Assembly (NCBI GenBank): GCA_961205875.1
Contig: OY540809.1
Span: 10,118,267-10,182,266 of the forward strand
Length of the DNA: 64,000 nt
Source of the DNA: Sialis fuliginosa
Taxonomy: Eukaryota; Arthropoda; Insecta; Megaloptera; Sialidae
Direction: 5' to 3'
Part shown: positions 3,791-58,480 of the stretch, in pieces
Numbering within the stretch: the stretch's first letter is position 1
Layout: every line of letters starts with the position of its first letter
Made by a program: the position numbers and the translations under genes
Notes under the pieces: model-generated
The model's database searches: none
What the model saw: only the letters and a program-made list of their open reading frames with translations
Told to the model about the DNA's origin: nothing

Positions 3791-3940
3791 TTATATTATA
3801 AAATGAATTGTATACGCTATCTATTGGCTTTTTATTTATTACTCAATGATTATTGTAAGTTCCGGAGATATAAGCTTTCATATTTTCGTTACATTCGTGT
3901 TTCCGAGGTTATCCCTTAAAATTGCCGGGGAAGACGTATA

Positions 3941-4508
3941 GTCCTTGGTCCCGGCTTTAAATTTTGAAATAAAAAATACTCCTCTGAAACTGCGTGAGTG
4001 GATTCATTTTGGCGTAACCTACAACTTTTTTATCTTCGAAAATTCTGAGAATTGGGGCGTTATTGATGTGGCATGCGTCAAACATGTTTAGGGCGTATAT
4101 CAGGGCAAGACCCTTGATTTTTGTAGGCCAGTATAACCATAACATTTTACTATTATTTATCTAGCAATTGTGCAAAAATCAGCCGGTTATTTATAAATTA
4201 CATAACATCATGAATTTGACATGTTGAGGGTGTAGGTCTCGCTAAATGCCCCAATATTTTTGTAGGTCAATATATTTCCCGGTGTTTGCATTATAAAATC
4301 TTGTTATTCAAGTGAAAAAGAAAGGGTTATTCGTAAATTTCTTATAACTATCGTTAAATTGACGTGTTTGACGCATGCCACATCAAAAACGCCCCAATAC
4401 TAAGAATTTTCGAAGATAAAAAAGTTGTAGGTTACGCCAAAATGAATCCACTCACGAAGTTTCAGATGAATATTTTTTATTTCAAAATTTAAAACCGGGA
4501 CCGAGGAC
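3941..4508. mobile_element. MITE with long terminal inverted repeats and TA target site, copy 1
   Basis: It starts GTCCTTGGTCCCGGC and ends with the inverse GGGACCGAGGAC, flanked by TA on both sides (3939-3940 and 4509-4510). The inverted arms are about 130 bp and share the blocks TGGCGTAACCTACAACTTTT and TATCTTCGAAAATTCT. The TA duplication suits the Tc1/mariner superfamily. A second copy at 17297-17806 carries the same arms but the interior in the opposite direction. The minus-strand frame at 3957-4145 runs through the arm and is not a gene. Confidence 0.85.
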
Positions 4509-4510
4509 TA

Positions 4511-6965: not shown

Positions 6966-8529
6966 ATACTGTTCGATATTAATTTATAAAATCAATAATT
7001 ACATTAACATAAACATAATATAATATTTGATTATTTTCGAAAAAAAAGATTACTTATTTCATAAGAATAAAATAAATTTTTCTCAAATATTTTTATCAAT
7101 CTACTACCTTATTATTTAAAGCCAAATTTAGAGCGGTAAGTTCATAGAATCAGTACTTAATAAGTTAATTCCGGTGAAGAATGTGAATTTGACACTCTAT
7201 GCGTTTAATATATAACAATTTGATCCACTGATCATTCTCGCCGCCCTTTAATTAAACTATTACCTCGCTATATATAAGATTTATAAATACCTACATGAGT
7301 ACTAAATCTGTCTGAAACGTGTTTAGAAATCTATTTATAATTTTTGTTTTTTCAAAGGACTATAAATATCTTTATTGCAATAAAATATAATACAGTTGGC
7401 ATCGGCAATGTGCTTTATTAGTATAAAATATTCACATCAAAATTGAAATACGGATTACTTATTTATAAATTTGACGAATCAAACGGAAAAAAGACCCTCT
7501 CAAAGAGGGACCGTTGCTATGTTATTAATACTTGATTTTATTTATATTTGGAAAATACAGGTACAAGTGAAAACAGGAAACGGAAGCTTGAATTATGTTC
7601 AATTTTTTAACTTAGATACATAAGTTCAATTTTATATTATATATTTTCCAATTTCAAGGTTATTTTTATTTAAATATGGGATAATTAATAGTTTTTGGAG
7701 TTGGAAAAATTGATTGTATTTTTCTTAATTTCCAGATAAATACCACATGAAGATTTAAAAAAACATTTTGCTTCCTCGCAATCGCAATATCCGAGATATG
7801 AGAAGCTTTGTGATCATTTTAGAAAGAGACAAAAAAATTGTTCTCCGATTTCAAAATTTTCTGTTCCAGATCACGACAAACACTTTTCGTTCCGAGTCTC
7901 TCTGTCTGTCTGTGTGTCTGTCCCCTGAATCCTTGTCAGACGCATAATTAATTAAACTTGGTTGGATGGTTGGGTCAGGCTTGGGGATGGTTCCATTTAA
8001 TTTAAAATTTAAATAAAATTAAGATTAAGAGATGGCCTTAAAAAAATCTACTGTAGAAAAGAAACAGTATTCTAGTATAGAGTATAGAGTAAAAGAAAAC
8101 ACAGTTTATTGGTGCATTTTACTTTATTAAAAACCATTTGCAACTGAAAATTTTCCTACGACAAAACTGAAAGTATGCCTCAGGTTGCATTTCCTAAAAC
8201 AAAATTAGAATTTAAAAGTTTTATTACGGTGATCCATGGACCGGATGTAACCAGCAAGGGACTATAATCTGACCCCTAAACATTACTCTCATGTATTTTG
8301 TTTACTCATAATAACTAACAGCTTATAAGTCTATTTTTGTACGCTCGTCCATCCGGCCCGCATGTTGGTTTTATCACCGCCCCAAGATTACTAAAAAGTT
8401 ATCGATCATTGTCATGTTACAGTGGTTCTCAAACAGATATTTACTGATATATATACTGATATTTTTTATTTATTTATAAGATTGCAATTCTAATTTTATA
8501 TTTTTTTTAACCGATGTGTAGGATTGATA
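6966..8529. other. Non-coding AT-rich stretch with repeat fragments
   Basis: No gene is visible. Around 7860-8010 a TCTGTCTGTCTGTG run, CCCTGAATC, CTTGGTTGGATGGTTG and GGATGGTTCCATTT match, in reverse complement, the segment 57190-57320. This is another copy of the repeat seen at the window start. At 8225-8385 two GC-richer inverted patches (GGTGATCCATGGACCGGATG and CATCCGG...TTATCACCG) suggest a decayed TIR element. Confidence 0.5.
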
Positions 8530-9056
8530 CAAGGTTAGTATATGTATAGGTTGCCTCATAACTTTTTGACCAATCAGCGGCTGCGTGTGATGACGTCACC
8601 CTGAGGAACCTTTAAACGTTGTTTCATATATTAAGTTTTTTTTCAAATTATTTCGAATTTTTGGATATTTGTATTTAAAAAAAGTAAATATTATTGTTTA
8701 TTACAGAAGCACAAATTATTACATATAATATTTCTTCATAAAAACTTTAAAATGATGTCAGAAATCAATGCTTAAAGAAAATACATTTCTTGGTTACACA
8801 TAAAAAAACACTTGTTTAAAACTATAATTTATAATAATAAAATAATAAAAATTTAGATTTAAAACTCAGTACACTATCAATATCAAATGAAAATATTTAA
8901 AAACAACTTACAATAAATCAGTTTAACTAAAATAAAGAGTAAATATAGTTTGACAGCCATTTATAATGTCAAAGAGTTCCTCACGATGACGCGTTCTCCC
9001 CTCTCATGCCACTCCCCGCCAGAGTTATGAGGCAACCTATTACTTTACTAACCTTG
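8530..9056. mobile_element. MITE with perfect 9-bp target duplication, copy 1
   Basis: The element starts CAAGGTTAGTA and ends TACTAACCTTG. It is flanked by the identical 9-mer GGATTGATA at 8521-8529 and 9057-9065. A second inverted motif, GGTTGCCTCATAACT near the left end and AGTTATGAGGCAACC near the right, extends the terminal inverted repeat. A diverged second copy lies at 24187-24658. A 9-bp duplication is usual for Mutator-like elements, whereas hAT and P elements make 8 bp. The superfamily is inferred only. No transposase frame is present. A CRE-like TGACGTCA occurs near 8591. Confidence 0.9.
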
Positions 9057-9096
9057 GGATTGATATGGTTTTTCATTATTATTGTAGACTGATAAC

Positions 9097-16647: not shown

Positions 16648-17296
16648 TATGTGTATCAAAAAATTTACAAAAAAATATTTAAAAAAATATTTGCTATCTA
16701 CATATAAAACATCAATTTTATACAATTTTAACTTTGACCAATTAAAGTAAATATAGTAATTTCAAAATTAAATATCACATGTTTTTAATAAAATATGTTT
16801 AATCAGAAGCCATTCGAATATCATTAAAATTCCCAATCAAAAATAATAATAAATATATTTACATGCTTTACAATTATATATATATTATCGTATATACAAA
16901 ATATACATACATACATAAAACATTTAATCACTTTTTTAAGTGATTATTTTGCCAGATATAGAGTTGATAAATACTGAAATTTACATTTACATATATTCTA
17001 ATAAAACTATAGTGCACTAATGTACACACGAATAAATGTAGACCTAGATATACATATATACATTAACGATAAGGGAATTATAATTTCAAATAAATGGGGA
17101 CTTTCAAATTTACATAACAACATTTCAATAGAAAAATATAATATATGTATATAAAACAATAAAAATAACTTTGATTATGAATGATTTTGAAAAAAATTTG
17201 AAAACGATTTAACTCCTTAAACTCGTTCGAGCCTCGAATCAAATGTTAAAGAGACTGTTAAATGTTTTATCAAAATAAATTTTATAATGCATATTA
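16648..17296. other. AT-rich stretch, nothing recognised
   Basis: The region is rich in TATATA and TACATA tracts with no continuous reading frame and no TIR or splice signal that I could support. Confidence 0.5.
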
Positions 17297-17806
17297 GTCC
17301 TCGGTCCCGGCTTTAAATTTAGAAATAAAAAATATTCCTCTGAAACTTCGTGAGTGAATTCATTTTGGCGTAACCTACAACTTTTTTATCTTCGAAAATT
17401 CTGAGAATTGGGGCGTTTTTGATGTGGTATGCGTCAAACATGTCAATTTAACGAATAACGCTTTCTTTTTTACTTGAATTACAAGATTTTATAATGCAAA
17501 CATCGGGAAATATATTAACCTACAAAAATATTGGTGCATTTAGCGAGACCTACACCCTCAACACGTCAAATTCATGATGTTATGTAATTTATAAATAACC
17601 GGCTGATTTTTGGTAGATAAATAATAGTAAAATGTTATGATTATACTAGCCTACAAAAATCAAGGGTCTTTTGCCCTGACCTACGCCCTAAATATGTTTG
17701 ACACATGCCACATCAAAAACGCCCCAATTCTCAGATAAGAAAGTTGTAGGTTACGCCAAAATGAATCCACTCACGAAGTTTCAGAGGAGTATTTTTTACC
17801 GAGGAC
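17297..17806. mobile_element. MITE with long terminal inverted repeats and TA target site, copy 2
   Basis: It starts GTCCTCGGTCCCGGC, ends ACCGAGGAC and is flanked by TA on both sides. The arms match those of 3941-4508. The interior (ACCTACACCCTCAACA, AACCGGCTGATTTTTG, TGACCTACGCCCTAAA) is the reverse complement of the interior of copy 1. The right end lacks about 20 bp of the arm (the AAAATTTAAAACCGGG portion), so this copy has a deletion. Confidence 0.85.
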
Positions 17807-18385
17807 TATATTCATTAACTTAGCTTACAATAATAATTATCAACTAAATATATATTATATTAATTAAAACAAAGCACAATCATGTAATGTATTTTATCGA
17901 TGATAAACAATAATAATTTAATACATAAATTAAAAATCTATTTCTATAATTAAAACTATTAATAACTAATCACTTCATTCCATCAACAATATCCACCTCT
18001 ATAAATTTAATTAATTAACTTTTAAAACATAGACAGAGAATTCCACCACTGGCCATTATAACGGTGATGATGTATGCGGCATTATCATGAAAAGACTAAT
18101 TGATCCATTTTCTTAATTATTGTTGAAATTATACAATAATGCGAGCTTTATACCGGGCTCGTTCCCAATTAATTTGTAAATACACAGTCGATGTGCCACA
18201 TTACAGTAGTTATCAATCAATTAACCAGATAACCTCGCTATCGGTTGTGGCAGGGATTCAGGGCCGCATACGCCATACCCTACCGTACTATATTTTAACT
18301 ATATAATAGTCACTATAATATAAGATCAAAAACGTAACCACACAAAATAACAAATACTAAAAGAGTTTCGTATTGAAATATAATA
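17807..18385. other. Gene-free; a moderately GC-rich patch at 18.0-18.3 kb
   Basis: Positions 18040-18295 hold a more complex sequence than the surroundings (CCACTGGCCATTATAACGG, ATACCGGGCTCGTTCCCAAT, CGCTATCGGTTGTGGCAGGG). AATTAATT and TTAATTATTG homeodomain-type motifs occur. No ORF or splice signal accompanies it. It may be conserved non-coding DNA or an old repeat; the sequence alone cannot decide. Confidence 0.35.
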
Positions 18386-24019: not shown

Positions 24020-24039
24020 TTTTGTCATGTACAGTGAAA

Positions 24040-24885
24040 TGCAGAAGTGGTCGTCCAGTTTTCATTGAAATTCGCTTATCACAAACTTAGTAGGCTCCTC
24101 CGTTTATAGTAGTCATATATATTTGTGCGATTAAATTATTATGTAATCTATTGAACATTGTATAATTAAATTTTGTAGCAATAAATTAAGGTTAGTAAAT
24201 AAACAGATTGTCTCATAACTTTTTGACCATTCAGCGGCCACGTGGGATACGTCACCCTGAGGAACCTTTCAAACGTTGTTTTCAAATTATTTCGAATTTT
24301 TAGATATTTATTATTAAAAAAAAGTAAATATTATTGTTTATTATACAGAAGCACAAATTATTACGTATAATGTTTCTTCATAAAATTTTTTAAATGATGT
24401 CAGAAATCAATGCTTAAAGAAAATACATTTGTTGGTTACACATTAAAAGAAACACTTGTTTAAAACTATAATTTATATTAATAAAAATTTAGATTTAAAA
24501 CTCAGTACACTATCAATATCAAATGAAAATATTTAAAAACAACTTACAATAAATCAGCTTAACTAAAACAAAGAGTAAATACGGTAAATAGCAAGAGTAA
24601 ATATAGTTTGACAGCCATTTATAATATTTAGAGGCAACCTGGTCATTTACTAACATTGGCAATAAATATTTGATATTACGAATTATAGTATTTAAATATG
24701 TTAAACTTGATATAAAATTAATAAATGAAATGAACGTATATTTGTGTTTTTATTTAAAATGATGTAACTATATAAGCTCCGCCCTAGAAAAAAGATAACC
24801 GATTATGTTTGTCTTAATATTTTGGAATCTGTTGGCAGACGATTTATGAAGTCCATAGTACATATCTATGTATGTCAACTGTTGT
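24040..24885 (+). repeat. Dispersed repeat interrupted by a nested MITE
   Basis: Left of the MITE, CTTATCACAAACTTAGTAGG, CATATATATTTGTGCGATTA and ATTGAA(C/A)ATTGTATAA match 58170-58350. Right of it, AATAAATATTTGATATT, GTATTTAAATAT(G/A)TTAAACTTGATA and AAAGATAACCGAT(T/G)ATGTTTG match 58370-58470. At 58.37 kb the two halves are contiguous, so this copy was split by insertion of the element at 24187-24658. The opposing frames at 24768-25028 and 24868-25074 overlap the repeat's end and each other and are not convincing genes. Confidence 0.75.
24187..24658. mobile_element. MITE with perfect 9-bp target duplication, copy 2
   Basis: It starts TAAGGTTAGTAAAT and ends ATTTACTAACATTG, flanked by GCAATAAAT at 24178-24186 and 24659-24667. 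The interior parallels 8530-9056 (CATAACTTTTTGACCA, CACCCTGAGGAACCTTT, CTCAGTACACTATCAATATC, AACAACTTACAATAAATCAG). Near the right end the GAGTTCCTCACG...AGTTATGA part of copy 1 is deleted. The empty site at 58370-58380 reads GTGGCAATAAATATTTG and has a single copy of the target. Confidence 0.9.
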
Positions 24886-34668: not shown

Positions 34669-36588
34669 ATGTCTATTACGATTATGTGCCTTACATCTGC
34701 CGGTGGGCTGCCGTTATTTGTAAGAAAGAAAGGCGATGCAAACACAACAAATAATGTAAATTTCATGAATAACAGTTATTTGAAAATTATCATTTAATAA
34801 CATTTTCAAATTTTAGTTACCATTCTCTGTAGTTGCATCTTTAAATGGGGTACATATGTTTGGAAAATCACATGGTATTGAAATTCAAAGTACGATAACA
34901 GAAAATGGAATTACAGTTTGGAAAGAATTCCACGAAAGGTACATCATTCAATAATTTTACAAAAGCTAATTTGATTTATGAATATAATGTTTTAGTATTA
35001 TTCTTATTGGTATGGTAAATGCAGTAGGTGAAGATGTAATGAGCCAACTATTAGAATCTATATTTTATTCCATGGTATTGACAGTCGGAATAGAAGATAT
35101 AAAAAATCAAAAAAACATTGAAAGATTAAAACGGGATTTAAGGGTAACAAATGTACTTTCATGTATACGAACTAACATTAATAATTATTTATGTTTTAGG
35201 TCAGTTTTCCTATTATAGATTTACTATTAGACTGTGCAGATTTAGGGAATTCAGGAGCAAATCAAAATGTAGATTTAATCGGACTTGTAGAAGCAATTTT
35301 ATGCTCTGAAAACCATTTACTCCAGGTATATTTTTTTATAACAGATAATTAACTTGAATGCAATTAATTTTGCTTTATGGAACCAAATGTTGATTTATAT
35401 TCATGCTTAAATTAAATGCATTAATATCATAATATAATTACTTATAAAAAAAATCAATTTAATGCCTATAAAATTAAAGCATAGATTTATAAAAAATTTA
35501 TAATATATACCTAACTATTATTTTATTACAGACTGTTTTGGAGAACTATTCAGAGAACGTAGACTCTTTGTTTGGATGCGTCCTGATTCATGGCCGTATT
35601 GCAGTAGCTACAAAAAACTGGTGGACTTTACACCCGTTGGAGCAAAAACTACTTATATTACTAATAACATCAGATACAAATGCTACTTCTCGTGACATTC
35701 CGGTATTTTTACCATTTAGAAGCCCAGATGTAAGAAACAAATTTAAATAAATTTAAACTTATTGAACTTTTTCATGAGGCAATATATTCGTAGAATAATT
35801 TGAACTGAACATTTACTATTATAAACGTTAACAAACATTTTCTCTTTAATTAACATACTGTAATTACTACACAGTGTTCAACATATGATTCTGTAATAAG
35901 TTTTTACTTTTAGGTTCCGTTTCGACTAGTATTTAGTGTTTTGATACCAGGTGTTGAAGTCTGTACTATTTGTGGACCAACACCTGATCTGCCTGAAATT
36001 GATCATATTATAATACAGTGTTTTAAATCATCGATCGATATATTGCAAGCAGCGGAACAATGTTCTCCTAGAAATTTCCCGTTGACAGTGCAATTTGATG
36101 CTGAAATATTAGGGTTTGTATTTATTTGTTTTTTTTTTCTCAAAAATTGAAATCCCCTCTTAATTACAATATATATAGCAGTTAATTTTTTTTATTATAT
36201 ATTTAATATTTTATTAATTATTTAATTGTTTCTCAGATTACTTCTTATAAATCCAGTTGAAGGAAAGTTTGTATTATCAAGAAATCTTCAACTAGCAACA
36301 AATAAACGTTCTCTAAGTGCAAACCACAGACTTGATATTTTAAGAACGTTTTTTTATGAAGCTGTTTCACCGTTTTTAATTAGAAACAATGAATCTGAAA
36401 CTGAAGGTGAAGAGGAATCTACATTAGAAACGTATTGGTGTTCTGAATATCATAAGTGTCATGCGAGTCGTGTTGACGATAACATATTATGTGTTTTGTA
36501 TAATGCAGTGGTACCAACTCATACTATGAGACTTTTAACACAAAAGACATTAAAGGATATTTTATTTGATAAACATTTGTGCTGGTAA
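34669..36588 (+). CDS. fuz: Fuzzy (FUZ/fy) planar cell polarity effector, seven exons, complete
   Basis: Exons are 34669-34755, 34817-34938, 34996-35143, 35200-35325, 35532-35729, 35914-36113 and 36237-36588 (TAA). All introns are GT-AG, 56-206 nt, and the joins give 410 residues, against about 418 in human FUZ. Recognised family segments are LTSAGGLPLF near the N-terminus, SLNGVHMFG (37-45), NIERLKRDLR (110-119), GRIAVATKNWW in exon 5, DIPVFLPFRSPD (216-227) and TICGPTPDLP in exon 6. Fuzzy proteins have longin-like domains. With Inturned and Wdpcp they form the CPLANE complex at the ciliary base, which in animals acts on Rab23 and ciliogenesis; in Drosophila fuzzy controls wing-hair polarity. 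The start is supported by the match from residue 2 onward and by the absence of an upstream in-frame alternative. Intron 6 uses a GTTTGT donor. Its left neighbour shares the promoter. Two AATAAA sites follow. Confidence 0.95.
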
Positions 36589-39910: not shown

Positions 39911-40816
39911 TCTAGTGCTAATTTTAAGAAAAAAATCTAGTTTTATTGAAAATAAAAGTATTGGTGTTATTTGCTTGTTACATCCATTATGTTAGATTAA
40001 AGTTATAATAATTATAAATATATGTAATATTATAATCACTATCTAGCAGTAAAAATAAATAAAATTACCTTTCCAACTTAAAGACTATAATACATATTCA
40101 TACGCACCAAACAATGGTTAAAATTATATCAGTAAAAAAAACGACTCTATATTTACCTCTTTGATCTTTCAACCCTTAATCATTATAACCACAATTGGTT
40201 GATATATGGCCAGTAACCAATTCCAACAGAAATACATTCTATAATAGCTCGTACTTCTCTGTCAGATAAACGGTTTATATCTTCATTAAATATCTTGAAA
40301 CATGTTTCAAGTTTAAGATTTCAATTGGTTATAATAACGTATTAATTTAATATATATGTGGGTGTGTTATGTCACAGTTTGTCTTCTCGTTAGCGTGTTA
40401 TTTCAACTTTGTAGTTATTAAAAATATTGATTTTTTTGCATATTTACTATATATGTTATAATTACTTACACACACACACATACGTGCAAAATTCAATTTG
40501 ACTCTCTAATGTAATTACATTTGTATGGACAGTATCTGACGCCACTGTCGTTAAAAAATAATGATAAATGAATGGTAGACAGTAATTCAGATGTTGAGAT
40601 ACAATGTACATATTGTATTATTTGTACTGGAGTTGAAATTAATTTTAGATATTTAAATGAGGCGTTTGCATGCCAAAAAGATAAAACACCATATTATAAA
40701 TAGGATATAAAACAAACGATATCAGGATATATTAATTACGAGTCGACTGCATGCAGGCATTATGTTCCTATATGTTGTATATTGTTATACTTACTAACTA
40801 TCAATATTTAAATATA
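39911..40816. other. AT-rich stretch, nothing recognised
   Basis: No frame above 60 codons, no splice signal that stands out and no terminal repeat was found. A short CA microsatellite (ACACACACACA) lies near 40469. Confidence 0.45.
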
Positions 40817-41068
40817 CACTCGGCGTCAAAAAAATCGCACCTTTTAAAAAATCTACTTCAAACAACTTTAAACCTTATTTGGAATCAATGATGGTAATGT
40901 TAAATATATCATTTGAAAGGTAACGAAAAGGAGTTAATTGTTTTTGGGTACTCCTTTTCGTTACCTTTCAAATGATACCTAACATTACCCTCATCATTGA
41001 TTCCAAAAAAGGTTTAAAGTTGTTTGAAGTAGATTTTTTTAAAGGTACGATTTTTTTGACGCCGAGTG
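40817..41068. mobile_element. Near-perfect foldback MITE (long hairpin)
   Basis: CACTCGGCGTCAAAAAAATCG at the left is matched by CGATTTTTTTGACGCCGAGTG at the right, and the arms continue almost to the centre. AAAATCTACTTCAAACAACT pairs with AGTTGTTTGAAGTAGATTTT, and GGTAACGAAAAGGAGT pairs with ACTCCTTTTCGTTACC. Arms are about 115 bp with a loop near 16 nt (TAATTGTTTTTGGGT region). TA lies just left of the element; the right flank is TTTA. A transcript would form a long double-stranded RNA hairpin. Confidence 0.9.
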
Positions 41069-43920
41069 TTTAAAATCCGTAGACTCTGTCTGTGTACATG
41101 TACAATGTAATTTTTTTATTGATACATCGTTTTATTGGCAATTATTCATTTTGATTTTTTTTAATATTGTCAGTTGACTCGGAAAAGAGTGAACCGAAGC
41201 CTAAGATCCTTAATTATGTTTAGGCCATGTAATTACTTAATTTCCCATGTAAAAATCAAAGTACATTTATTTTTATTTTTAACATTAGTACTAATTAGAT
41301 GAAACACCTATATCCCCCCCCCCCTCCCATAAAATAAAAATAAAATAAATCTGAAATATTTGCATTTCTTTTTATAATATTAAGTAAATCGAATGAAGTA
41401 AAATTGCTGTAGTATTTTTTTCTATGTACATGTACATAAACATATGTATTATTATTTATATTAAATATTACTTAATTTCGTTATCAAAAATACATTTTAT
41501 TACAATATTTTTATGACGTAAAACCCACAGCGATATTCAAAACACCCACATATTTACGATAAAGGCATTATTCATACTCTAATTCTAAACTATTTTATTT
41601 AGTGAATTGTTTAGTTTATATCATAATCGATTAGAACGAAATAACAATAGTATAAGAAATAGTTTGTTCTCAAACTTATTTAATTTAATTGTAGGTACAA
41701 TCATTGGTCAAAATTTTTAAGATATCTATATTTACGTATTTTATTTATGTCTTCATATGTATTTAGTAGAGTTATTAAAATTTTACAAATAATGTAAATA
41801 TGAAAACGATAAAACCAATCAATAAATTAAATATTGTATAAATTAACACAAATTGCTTAATACCATTTAAAAGGATGTAGTTTCAGCTTTAAATGATTTT
41901 TTTATATTTGATTTATGATTTTTCCAAAGTTTTATTTCATATTAAATAAAAATAACAATTTTTCATTAATCTCTAATAGCTTCGTGGAAATTTTGAAAAA
42001 TGTCAATGAGAAAAAATTTGAAGTTTAAACACGCTTTAAAAATAATTTAACTCTATGCACCTAAAAAAAATTACATATTTTCGCTTTTAATCCCATAATT
42101 TTACGAAAAATTTGTCAATTTGAATTTTTTACCAATTTTATATATTTTTAAATATTGATTCAATTTTTATAAAAATTTTGACCATTAAATTATTTTGATG
42201 AATGTACAATACATCTGCACTTTCTGCTGGACCTCTGCAATCTAAGATGAAATATTTGTCGTAACTAAGTACATTTACATTAAACTTATCTTAACATTCT
42301 TAACGAACCGTTTAAGATATGCAAATGCGTTTTCTAAAATAAGAAATCAAGAACACAGATTTAATACCAAAAATAATTACACACTTGTTTTAAATGTATT
42401 TTAAACATCAACCTGAATGATGAAATGAGAAAAAACAATGGTAACTATAACACCAAGATAACAATCACTTCATTTGAAAGTATTAAACAATGGAGTTACC
42501 TGGAAGACAGTATGACCGGTGATTAATTATTAAAAAAAAGAAAATACAACCGTGTCTCTTTGCAAACAACTTTAATACATTCTAGGAAACATTTTTGTAC
42601 ATTCTCGCATTTTCATGACATATAATTGTAAAAACTTACATGCAAGTATGTTCATTAAAACATTAGTTTGTATGTTTATGTACAAACCTTGCTTTATATT
42701 TTATTCATGAGGATATTATTATTGTTCTTTTGTTTTACAAAGATTTTAATATGTTGAGGAATTTTAGTATATGAGCTTAAGGCCACTAAAGGGCGTATTA
42801 GATTAAAGTTATAAGTATGGTGAAGAAGTTTAACAAAAAGGTTTTACAAAAAAAAACTGTTTTTTTTATCTGTTCATAATATCTTTAATTTAACCAATGC
42901 CCTTGAATCTTGAAGATTTTATTTTGGCCTTGGGGTTTCTGATTATTTTATTTTTGTGACCTTAAAATGTTGTGATATACTTGTTAATTTTTTTTACTAA
43001 ATCAATGAAACTAACGTAGAAAAATTGTATAAAATAACATAAACTTATAAATACTGAAAAATCTTGATTTGCAATCGTTAATGCCACTAGAAATACAAAA
43101 AAAATACGAAAGAATAGGATAGGATATGATTTTTGTTTTGAACATAAATTGACAAGTGCTATACATGCAGTCTTCTGACCGAAATATTCTCAAAAATTGC
43201 TGAACTGATTTTAGTGAAACCTATACAAACACATTCCTTGAAATCTCAGAAGTTCTATAAGGTACATATTATCACGCTATCACTCAAAACAGTTAAGCGG
43301 TGACTATTTATATTTTTAAATTCATTCTGTGAAATACAATAACATTTAAAAATCTTTAAATTATGTTTTTTAATAATTCATAACGACCGACAAAGATATA
43401 TTTTATTAATTACATAAATTAATTTATATTTCACTAAATACAAACAAAGAATATTAAACTATATCCTGTTTTATGGTTTTACACTTCTAACACAAAGAAA
43501 GTCGTATGTTTTCTTTTGTTAATTTCCTAAAACATAACCACAAAGTTAAAAAAAAACACTTATCTCTCAAGAGCGCATATATTATTATCATCTGACAGCC
43601 TCTTCCAAGAAACTACTGATAACTGTTATCAGTAATATATAACATGAGTGTATAGACTACCTGGAAAGAGATGTTAATTTGCACATTACACGAAATATCA
43701 TATACTGTGCAAAAGAACATGTATTCTGTAACAAAAATACTACCTTTTACTGATTCCTATCAAATTTGTTAACATCGTTGTATTATTATTTTTCTACTGT
43801 AATTTATTGTAGTTTTTAATTAATAGATTAAAATATGAGTACATGGATTAATTTAAAAGATCATTTATCTAAATTTATGCTACATTTGTACATGAATGTT
43901 AATTTGCGATTTTGCTTTAA
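41069..43920. other. AT-rich stretch, nothing recognised
   Basis: The region contains homopolymer C (about 41310) and T/A runs. The frame at 43011-43193 (minus) has no recognisable domain. No TIR pair other than that of the next feature was found. Confidence 0.45.
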
Positions 43921-55686: not shown

Positions 55687-56208
55687 GAGTACGTTTACAT
55701 AGCACTGTTATTCCAGTTTTACTGTAACCGGTGTAGTAAATCCGGGTTTAAAAATTCGTGTAGATGGCGCACTACACCCGACATAACGAATCAGGTTTAG
55801 TTATGCTATTCCTCTTGACCTACAGGCTAAACCGGAATAAAAACGCATGTAAACTGCATGGACATAGTTATAGCTATTTAGCTAACCCCAAAAAATATAA
55901 GTATCTACGGAGTATAGGGATTTCATCGCATTAACATTTGAAAAAGCGTCGTTAGTTAAAATATGCTTAAAACACCTGAGACGAAGAGATGGAAAACAAG
56001 AGAAAGCGTGATTCGTGGGACGTAGAGGAGACGAAGTATTTTTGGGATTTCTTGTTGGTACGCCATCGAACTTATAGCGTACTTCAAATCGAAATTATAA
56101 TTCCAGCTGGCGTTACTTATTCTCGTATGTGTAAACAGCACCGCTTAAAATGATTTAACTACATCGGTTACAGTAAAACCGTAATAATAGCACTGTTTTA
56201 ACGTACTC
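55687..56208. mobile_element. DNA transposon or MITE with about 55-bp inverted termini
   Basis: Left: GAGTACGTTTACATAGCACT, GTTATTCCAGTTTTACTGTA, ACCGGTGTAGT. Right, inverted: ACTACATCGGTTACAGTAAA, ACCGTAATAATAGCACTG, then TTTTAACGTACTC. The interior also shows inverted words (GATGGCGCACTACACCCGAC and CCGGAATAAAAACGCATGTA). The flanks TTCAAT and GATATT show no duplication. The minus-strand frame 55956-56141 is internal and lacks a transposase motif. Confidence 0.7.
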
Positions 56209-57779: not shown

Positions 57780-58149
57780 GTAAATTCTATATTATACAAA
57801 TATAATGCATATTGTGTTCTTCGGATTGTTATTTTTTATGAGATTGTTTTTAACATAATAATTTTTTTACATATTTTTATTTTTTAACTTCAGTTCGATC
57901 TGGTTGGAGCTCTATATAATTATTTTAATCTCTATACACTGCTCCACTTAATTAAGGGATCAGATAAAAAATATCGAAAATTTTCGCTTTTTTGAAGCTT
58001 GTATACTTTCTAGTTTTTGAATCATAAACTGAATTTTTGTATCATCCCTTAGCGAGCCGTGAGAAATGAAAAAGACAACAAAATTATCCTTTAATTAAAT
58101 TAAATAAATACGCTTTTCTTAATTGCAAAGTACAGTTACCTGCATTAAT
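57780..58149. other. Probable intron, nothing recognised
   Basis: AT-rich sequence directly after the candidate donor; no further structure. Confidence 0.35.
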
Positions 58150-58480
58150 GGTCTTGCAGTTTGTTTTCATTTTCGTTTATCACAAACTTAGTAGGCTCCT
58201 CCCATTTGATTATTATAATATTTAAATCATTTCTCCATGTATCAAACAAAGACAGATATTTTGAAATTCATTTGATAGATAAAGAACTACTCTTCGTCTA
58301 TAGTACTCATATATATTTGTGCGATTAAATTATCTATTGAAAATTGTATAAGTCAATTTTGTGGCAATAAATATTTGATATTCCAAATTTTAGTATTTAA
58401 ATATATTAAACTTGATAGAAAAAGATAACCGATGATGTTTGTCTTTAAATTTGGAATCTGTTGTAAGCGATTCTAGCCTT
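58150..58480 (+). repeat. Dispersed repeat, copy with the empty MITE site
   Basis: Same family as 24040-24885. Across the insertion point it reads GTGGCAATAAATATTTGATA, with only one GCAATAAAT, where the 24.2 kb copy has the MITE and two. It has its own insertion of about 100 bp (ATTTGATTATTATAATATTT region) after GTAGGCTCCTCC that the other copy lacks. Confidence 0.8.

What the first reader, a model, noticed from the sequence alone, without database searches (positions are those of the whole stretch)
24178..24667. MITE insertion with 9-bp target duplication and a paralogous empty site in the same window
The element at 24187-24658 is flanked by GCAATAAAT twice. The same host repeat at 58370-58380 is uninterrupted and has one GCAATAAAT. 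A second family member at 8530-9056 has its own perfect 9-bp duplication (GGATTGATA). Two independent perfect 9-mers plus an empty site prove transposition and fix both ends. CAAGGTTAGTAA ends with 9-bp duplications do not match a family I can name; Mutator-like mobilisation is the inference.
Basis: partly seen in the sequence, partly recalled or inferred. Interest (0 to 1): 0.7.

Follow-up and report, generated by a model that had tools for sequence, protein, structure and literature searches.

The report
Two short non-coding jumping-DNA copies
Two related, non-coding pieces of transposable DNA sit in an animal genome, each with a matching pair of nine-letter insertion scars, and a similar uninterrupted copy of one landing site lies nearby; it is an ordinary kind of parasite DNA whose driving enzyme could not be identified here.

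Summary
Copy B (24187-24658) is flanked by GCAATAAAT twice; copy A (8530-9056) by GGATTGATA twice. A and B are 91% identical over 445 aligned bases and share inverted ends, 34 bp at 88% in A. Neither has a reading frame above 48 codons. This is a MITE family in an animal genome, seen in two copies. New here: in A, GGTTGCCTCA lies at bases 20-29 from each end, and an inverted relative of it at 73-82.

The superfamily is not proven. Mutator-like (perhaps Phantom) mobilisation is the best inference from 9-bp duplications. Two cautions: both duplications begin with G, so an 8-bp duplication plus one matching base is not excluded; and the ends fit the hAT terminal consensus as I recall it. Merlin is disfavoured: its ends start GG. 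The own-genome search did not complete in 16 attempts, so copy number, genome-wide duplication length and an autonomous partner remain untested. A new member of a known kind; low interest.

The parts
24187..24658 (.). MITE copy B, 472 bp
   Evidence: 91% identical to copy A over 445 aligned bases; inverted arms 24188-24214 / 24631-24657, 27 nt at 81%; longest stop-to-stop frame 48 codons
24178..24186 (.). left target-site duplication GCAATAAAT of copy B
   Evidence: exact 9-mer
24659..24667 (.). right target-site duplication GCAATAAAT of copy B
   Evidence: exact 9-mer
8530..9056 (.). MITE copy A, 527 bp
   Evidence: inverted arms 8530-8563 / 9023-9056, 34 nt at 88%; longest stop-to-stop frame 46 codons; as single-stranded DNA none of 100 shuffles folded as well, z -6.13
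8521..8529 (.). left target-site duplication GGATTGATA of copy A
   Evidence: exact 9-mer
9057..9065 (.). right target-site duplication GGATTGATA of copy A
   Evidence: exact 9-mer
8549..8558 (+). outer end motif GGTTGCCTCA, bases 20-29 from the left end of A
9028..9037 (-). outer end motif (TGAGGCAACC on +), bases 20-29 from the right end of A
8602..8610 (-). inner, inverted relative of the end motif (TGAGGAACC on +), bases 73-81 from the left end of A
8975..8983 (+). inner, inverted relative of the end motif (AGTTCCTCA), bases 74-82 from the right end of A; in a stretch that copy B lacks
58364..58372 (.). single GCAATAAAT in the uninterrupted paralogue of the host repeat (empty site)
58130..58472 (.). 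paralogue of the host repeat without the MITE (pieces 58130-58202, 58292-58372, 58362-58422, 58419-58472)
   Evidence: match 24029-24101, 24098-24186, 24657-24717 and 24789-24844 at 79-92%

Best explanation
A and B are two copies of one non-autonomous DNA-transposon (MITE) family. Both were moved in trans by a transposase encoded elsewhere that binds the roughly 34-bp inverted ends, cuts the element out and inserts it at staggered cuts 9 bases apart, so that gap filling duplicates 9 bp of target. Copy B landed in an already dispersed host repeat, of which another copy without the MITE is still present. The 9-bp stagger makes a Mutator-like (MULE) transposase, possibly of the animal Phantom group, the most likely mover. 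Shown: ends (to about one base), duplications, paralogous empty site, two copies, no coding capacity. Inferred: mobilisation in trans, the cut-and-paste route, the MULE class, and that the paired motifs in each end are transposase binding sites.
For: Exact 9-mer duplications at both elements with symmetrical ends. Inverted arms of 34 nt at 88% in A, and a second inverted stretch at 8594-8620 / 8965-8991, 74% over 27 nt, which reads as an interrupted, imperfect inverted end of about 90 bp. End motif and its inverted relative at matching distances from both ends of A. Published MULE features, seen as passages: TSDs 8-11 bp, TIRs between 14 and 500 bp; invertebrate Phantom with 8-10 bp TSDs where indicated and TIRs of 18-613 bp or none (PMC6446971); mosquito MULEs with 8-9 bp TSDs and non-autonomous derivatives (PMC5225508); nematode Tm1 with MITE-like members, 8-10 and most commonly 9 bp TSDs in 45 of 53 elements, and a Phantom-like transposase (PMC3169594); a barley MULE with 9-bp TSDs at 267 of 278 copies (PMC9168764).
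Against: No transposase was seen, and only 10 of 289 window ORFs were scanned for one. Only two copies were examined. Both duplications begin with G, and 8-bp parses are exact in both copies. The termini CAAGG, CAAGG, TAAGG, CAATG also fit the hAT terminal consensus YARNG (recalled; a paper search for that word with hAT found 0). 12 of 14 mosquito MULE families have TIRs over 100 bp, longer than the 34 bp here.
Confidence: 0.6

Rival explanations
1. A hAT-superfamily MITE with true 8-bp duplications (GATTGATA and CAATAAAT), the extra G being part of the right end or a coincidence.
For: Both 9-mers begin with G, and the 8-bp parse with elements 8530-9057 and 24187-24659 is exact. All four termini fit the hAT consensus YARNG, recalled. 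Size, AT-richness (G+C 0.28 and 0.25) and lack of coding resemble Mar, a Drosophila hAT MITE of 610 bp with 8-bp TSDs (PMC3517528, passages).
Against: It makes the two ends unequal by one base, while the symmetrical parse gives 9. The Buster target consensus nnnTAnnn is met by 1 of the 4 possible 8-mers, counted by eye (CAATAAAT yes; GATTGATA, GGATTGAT, GCAATAAA no). Mar TIRs are 11 bp and start CAG, unlike 34 bp starting CAAGG.
Confidence: 0.22
2. A Merlin-superfamily MITE (8-9 bp duplications).
For: Merlin makes 8-bp or 9-bp TSDs and has TIRs of 24-462 bp (PMC8101967, passages).
Against: That paper gives GG as the first bases of its new families and of all earlier Merlin families; the four ends here start CA or TA.
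Confidence: 0.03
3. A P-superfamily or still unnamed DDE-superfamily MITE.
For: Ends CA...TG also occur in P elements (recalled). No listed paper describes these ends in a transposon (capped lists).
Against: P-type duplications are 7-8 bp (recalled), which needs a shifted parse.
Confidence: 0.12
4. No transposition: segmental duplication or chance repeats produced the picture.
For: The host flanks are themselves repeated in the window.
Against: The A-B match starts at the element's end and not in the flanks, and the two copies have different exact 9-mers at the exact ends of the inverted repeats; random pairs give such a 9-mer in 5 of 200000 draws; the paralogue lacks the insert and one 9-mer.
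Confidence: 0.01

Closest known systems
Tm1 MITE-like elements of root-knot nematodes (Phantom-type MULE), PMC3169594
   Same: Non-coding members, inverted ends, most commonly 9-bp target duplications without a clear consensus (passages).
   Different: Tm1 ends are built from 13-15 bp tandem repeats with unequal outer motifs; here the ends are simple and symmetrical. Tm1 has a transposase-bearing member; none was seen here.
Non-autonomous derivatives of Muta1/Muta5 (Aedes aegypti MULEs), PMC5225508
   Same: Derivatives that share their ends with a full-length element and have 8-9 bp duplications (passages).
   Different: 12 of 14 of those families have TIRs over 100 bp, and 10 of these 12 have subterminal tandem repeats; neither was seen here.
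Mar, a hAT (Buster) MITE of Drosophila, PMC3517528
   Same: 610 bp, AT-rich, non-coding (passages).
   Different: 8-bp duplications with nnnTAnnn and 11-bp TIRs starting CAG; here 9 bp in the symmetrical parse, 34 bp, CAAGG.
Merlin, PMC8101967
   Same: 8-9 bp duplications, TIR length range that includes 34 bp (passages).
   Different: Merlin ends start GG; here CA or TA.

Membership tests
MITE (non-autonomous DNA transposon) | Short, terminal inverted repeats, no coding capacity | tested here: met
   472 and 527 bp; arms 34 nt at 88% (A) and 27 nt at 81% (B); frames of at most 48 codons
MITE (non-autonomous DNA transposon) | Target-site duplications and more than one copy | tested here: met
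   2 of 2 copies found in the window have exact adjoining 9-mers
MITE (non-autonomous DNA transposon) | High genomic copy number | not tested
   own-genome search did not complete (16 calls, e.g. 6 and 61)
Mutator-like (MULE / Phantom) | 8-11 bp target duplications, commonly 9 | tested here: inconclusive
   9 bp in 2 of 2 by the symmetrical parse, but 8 bp plus one shared base not excluded; 8 bp would itself lie in the MULE range
Mutator-like (MULE / Phantom) | Partner with a MULE DDE transposase and the same ends | not tested
   needs the genome; the genome search unanswered
hAT | 8-bp duplication (nnnTAnnn for Buster) | tested here: inconclusive
   8-bp parse possible but makes the ends unequal; Buster consensus met by 1 of 4 possible 8-mers
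hAT | Partner with a hAT transposase and the same ends | not tested
   needs the genome; the genome search unanswered
Merlin | 5'-GG terminus | tested here: not met
   ends CAAGG, CAAGG, TAAGG, CAATG

The most novel reading that the evidence does not exclude
The family belongs to a lineage whose ends (CAAGGTTAGTA... with GGTTGCCTCA at 20-29 and an inverted half-site at 73-82) match no described superfamily: either a MULE branch with simple symmetrical ends and a paired, head-to-head binding-site architecture, or a hAT-like enzyme with a 9-bp stagger.
Probability: 0.1. Interest if true: 0.4.

Novelty: new member of a known kind. Interest (0 to 1): 0.2.

Why it matters
It gives ends and duplications, good to about one base, for a MITE family that I could not name (no repeat library such as Repbase or Dfam was on hand), enough to find its full-length partner once the genome can be searched. 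Otherwise it is routine: animal genomes hold many such families (general knowledge).

Tried and rejected
Own-genome search: the genome search with copy A against 'own' was sent 16 times in the same form and did not complete.

Other collections: end and interior patterns gave 0 matches in viral contigs and 0 in genome contigs. These hold viral and prokaryotic sequence and were exact-match scans, so this says little about animals.

Literature: searches for the ends found 84 papers holding CAAGGTTAG (30 listed) and 40 papers holding at least one of six end strings (25 listed); none of the listed titles concerns a transposon, and the unlisted papers were not seen. Five topic searches led to the six papers of which I read passages; one more found nothing, as did YARNG with hAT. 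The original Phantom paper is not held. No paper was read whole.

Window scan: a script for inverted ends with exact 8-10 bp duplications returned 3 rows: copy A, and one other element in two parses. Five order-2 Markov controls gave 0, 0, 0, 0 and 1. It missed copy B because it demanded equal first bases at both ends (T against C in B).

Protein families: Pfam was run on 10 of the 289 ORFs of at least 45 aa that a complexity filter kept (333 before it). Three matched FUZ-type longin domains (one below cut-off), one had a sub-cut-off match to a phage family (E 0.011) and six had none. The other 279 were not scanned, so absence of a transposase in the window is not shown. Rfam matches at gathering level: 0. 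tRNAs: 0 (bacterial settings).

Full report
Observation. Both elements and both duplications are as described. Copy B spans 24187-24658 between two GCAATAAAT; copy A spans 8530-9056 between two GGATTGATA. Sliding each end by up to 30 bases gave no other exact 9-mer duplication. Among random position pairs 300-700 bp apart, 5 of 200000 carry an exact adjoining 9-mer duplication. It is a paralogue at 79-92% identity, with insertions or deletions between the matching pieces. It therefore shows that B entered a repeat that already existed; it is not an allelic empty site.

Anatomy. A and B align over 445 bases with 22 transitions and 18 transversions, 91% identical, K2P 0.096, so they are probably not products of one very recent burst, assuming neutral decay. 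The inverted arms of A are 34 nt at 88%; those of B are 27 nt at 81%. A further inverted stretch in A, 8594-8620 with 8965-8991, is 74% over 27 nt. Within it lies an inverted relative of the end motif: GGTTGCCTCA is at bases 20-29 from both ends, TGAGGAACC at 73-81 from the left, and the counterpart AGTTCCTCA at 74-82 from the right. Copy B keeps the right outer motif with one mismatch and the left inner one; its left outer motif has two changes, and its right inner motif lies in a stretch that B lacks. This head-to-head pairing is what one would expect of transposase binding sites, but that is inference. Neither copy codes for a protein of note (longest frames 46 and 48 codons). As single-stranded DNA, none of 100 shuffles of copy A folded as well, as expected of inverted ends.

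Duplication length. The symmetrical parse gives 9 bp in both copies. Both 9-mers begin with G, so an 8-bp duplication with a right end one base longer, or with a chance match, is also exact in both. G makes up 13.4% of the window, so a shared G is unusual under either parse, and with two copies neither can be excluded. The symmetry of the ends is what favours 9.

Superfamily. MULEs make 8-11 bp duplications, and the invertebrate Phantom group has 8-10 bp where indicated, with TIRs of 18-613 bp or none (PMC6446971, passages). Mosquito MULEs make 8-9 bp duplications (PMC5225508, passages). Nematode Tm1 has MITE-like members with most commonly 9-bp duplications and a Phantom-like transposase (PMC3169594, passages). 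A barley MULE has 9-bp duplications at 267 of 278 copies (PMC9168764, passages). Merlin makes 8-9 bp duplications but its ends start GG (PMC8101967, passages), not met here. hAT makes 8-bp duplications; the ends here fit its recalled consensus YARNG, while the Buster target consensus nnnTAnnn (PMC3517528, passages) is met by 1 of 4 possible 8-mers. I put MULE at 0.6 and hAT at 0.22. Because MULEs also make 8-bp duplications, an 8-bp result alone would not exclude them.

Context. The window is 23-33% G+C in 2-kb steps. Three reading frames between 34988 and 36585 match the three longin-domain families of FUZ/MON1/HPS1 proteins: Fuz_longin_2 (2.1e-12) and Fuz_longin_3 (4.7e-13) above cut-off, Fuz_longin_1 (0.00066) below it. 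A fourth frame that I chose by eye as FUZ-like, 35914-36147, had no match. A FUZ gene fits an animal genome (recalled); the species was not identified.

Limits. Everything above rests on two copies and one paralogous empty site. The finding is a sound description of an ordinary MITE family with an open superfamily assignment.

Noticed in passing
55709-56186 (outer arms 55687-56208): A second TIR element: 24-nt ends matching at 21 of 24 (TATTCCAGTTTTACTGTAACCGG...), flanked by an exact 10-bp direct repeat ATAGCACTGT, which itself sits between short inverted flanks GAGTACGTT / AACGTACTC, as if it had inserted into a palindromic target. Not related in its ends to the MITE above; possibly also Mutator-type.
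   Followed up: partly
3939-4510 and 17292-17808: Another inverted-repeat family with ends TAGTCCTYGGTCCCGG; arms of 149 nt at 94% in the first copy; TA at the borders, perhaps Tc1/mariner-type.
   Followed up: partly
40813-41072: A 260-bp near-palindrome, arms 81 nt at 95%, ends TATACACTCGGCGTC / GACGCCGAGTGTTTA.
   Followed up: partly
34988-36585: Frames of a FUZ-like (longin-domain) gene on the + strand, in a repeat-rich window.
   Followed up: partly
24571-24603: Copy B carries an 11-bp direct repeat AAGAGTAAATA, 22 bp apart, where copy A has a single unit.
   Followed up: no
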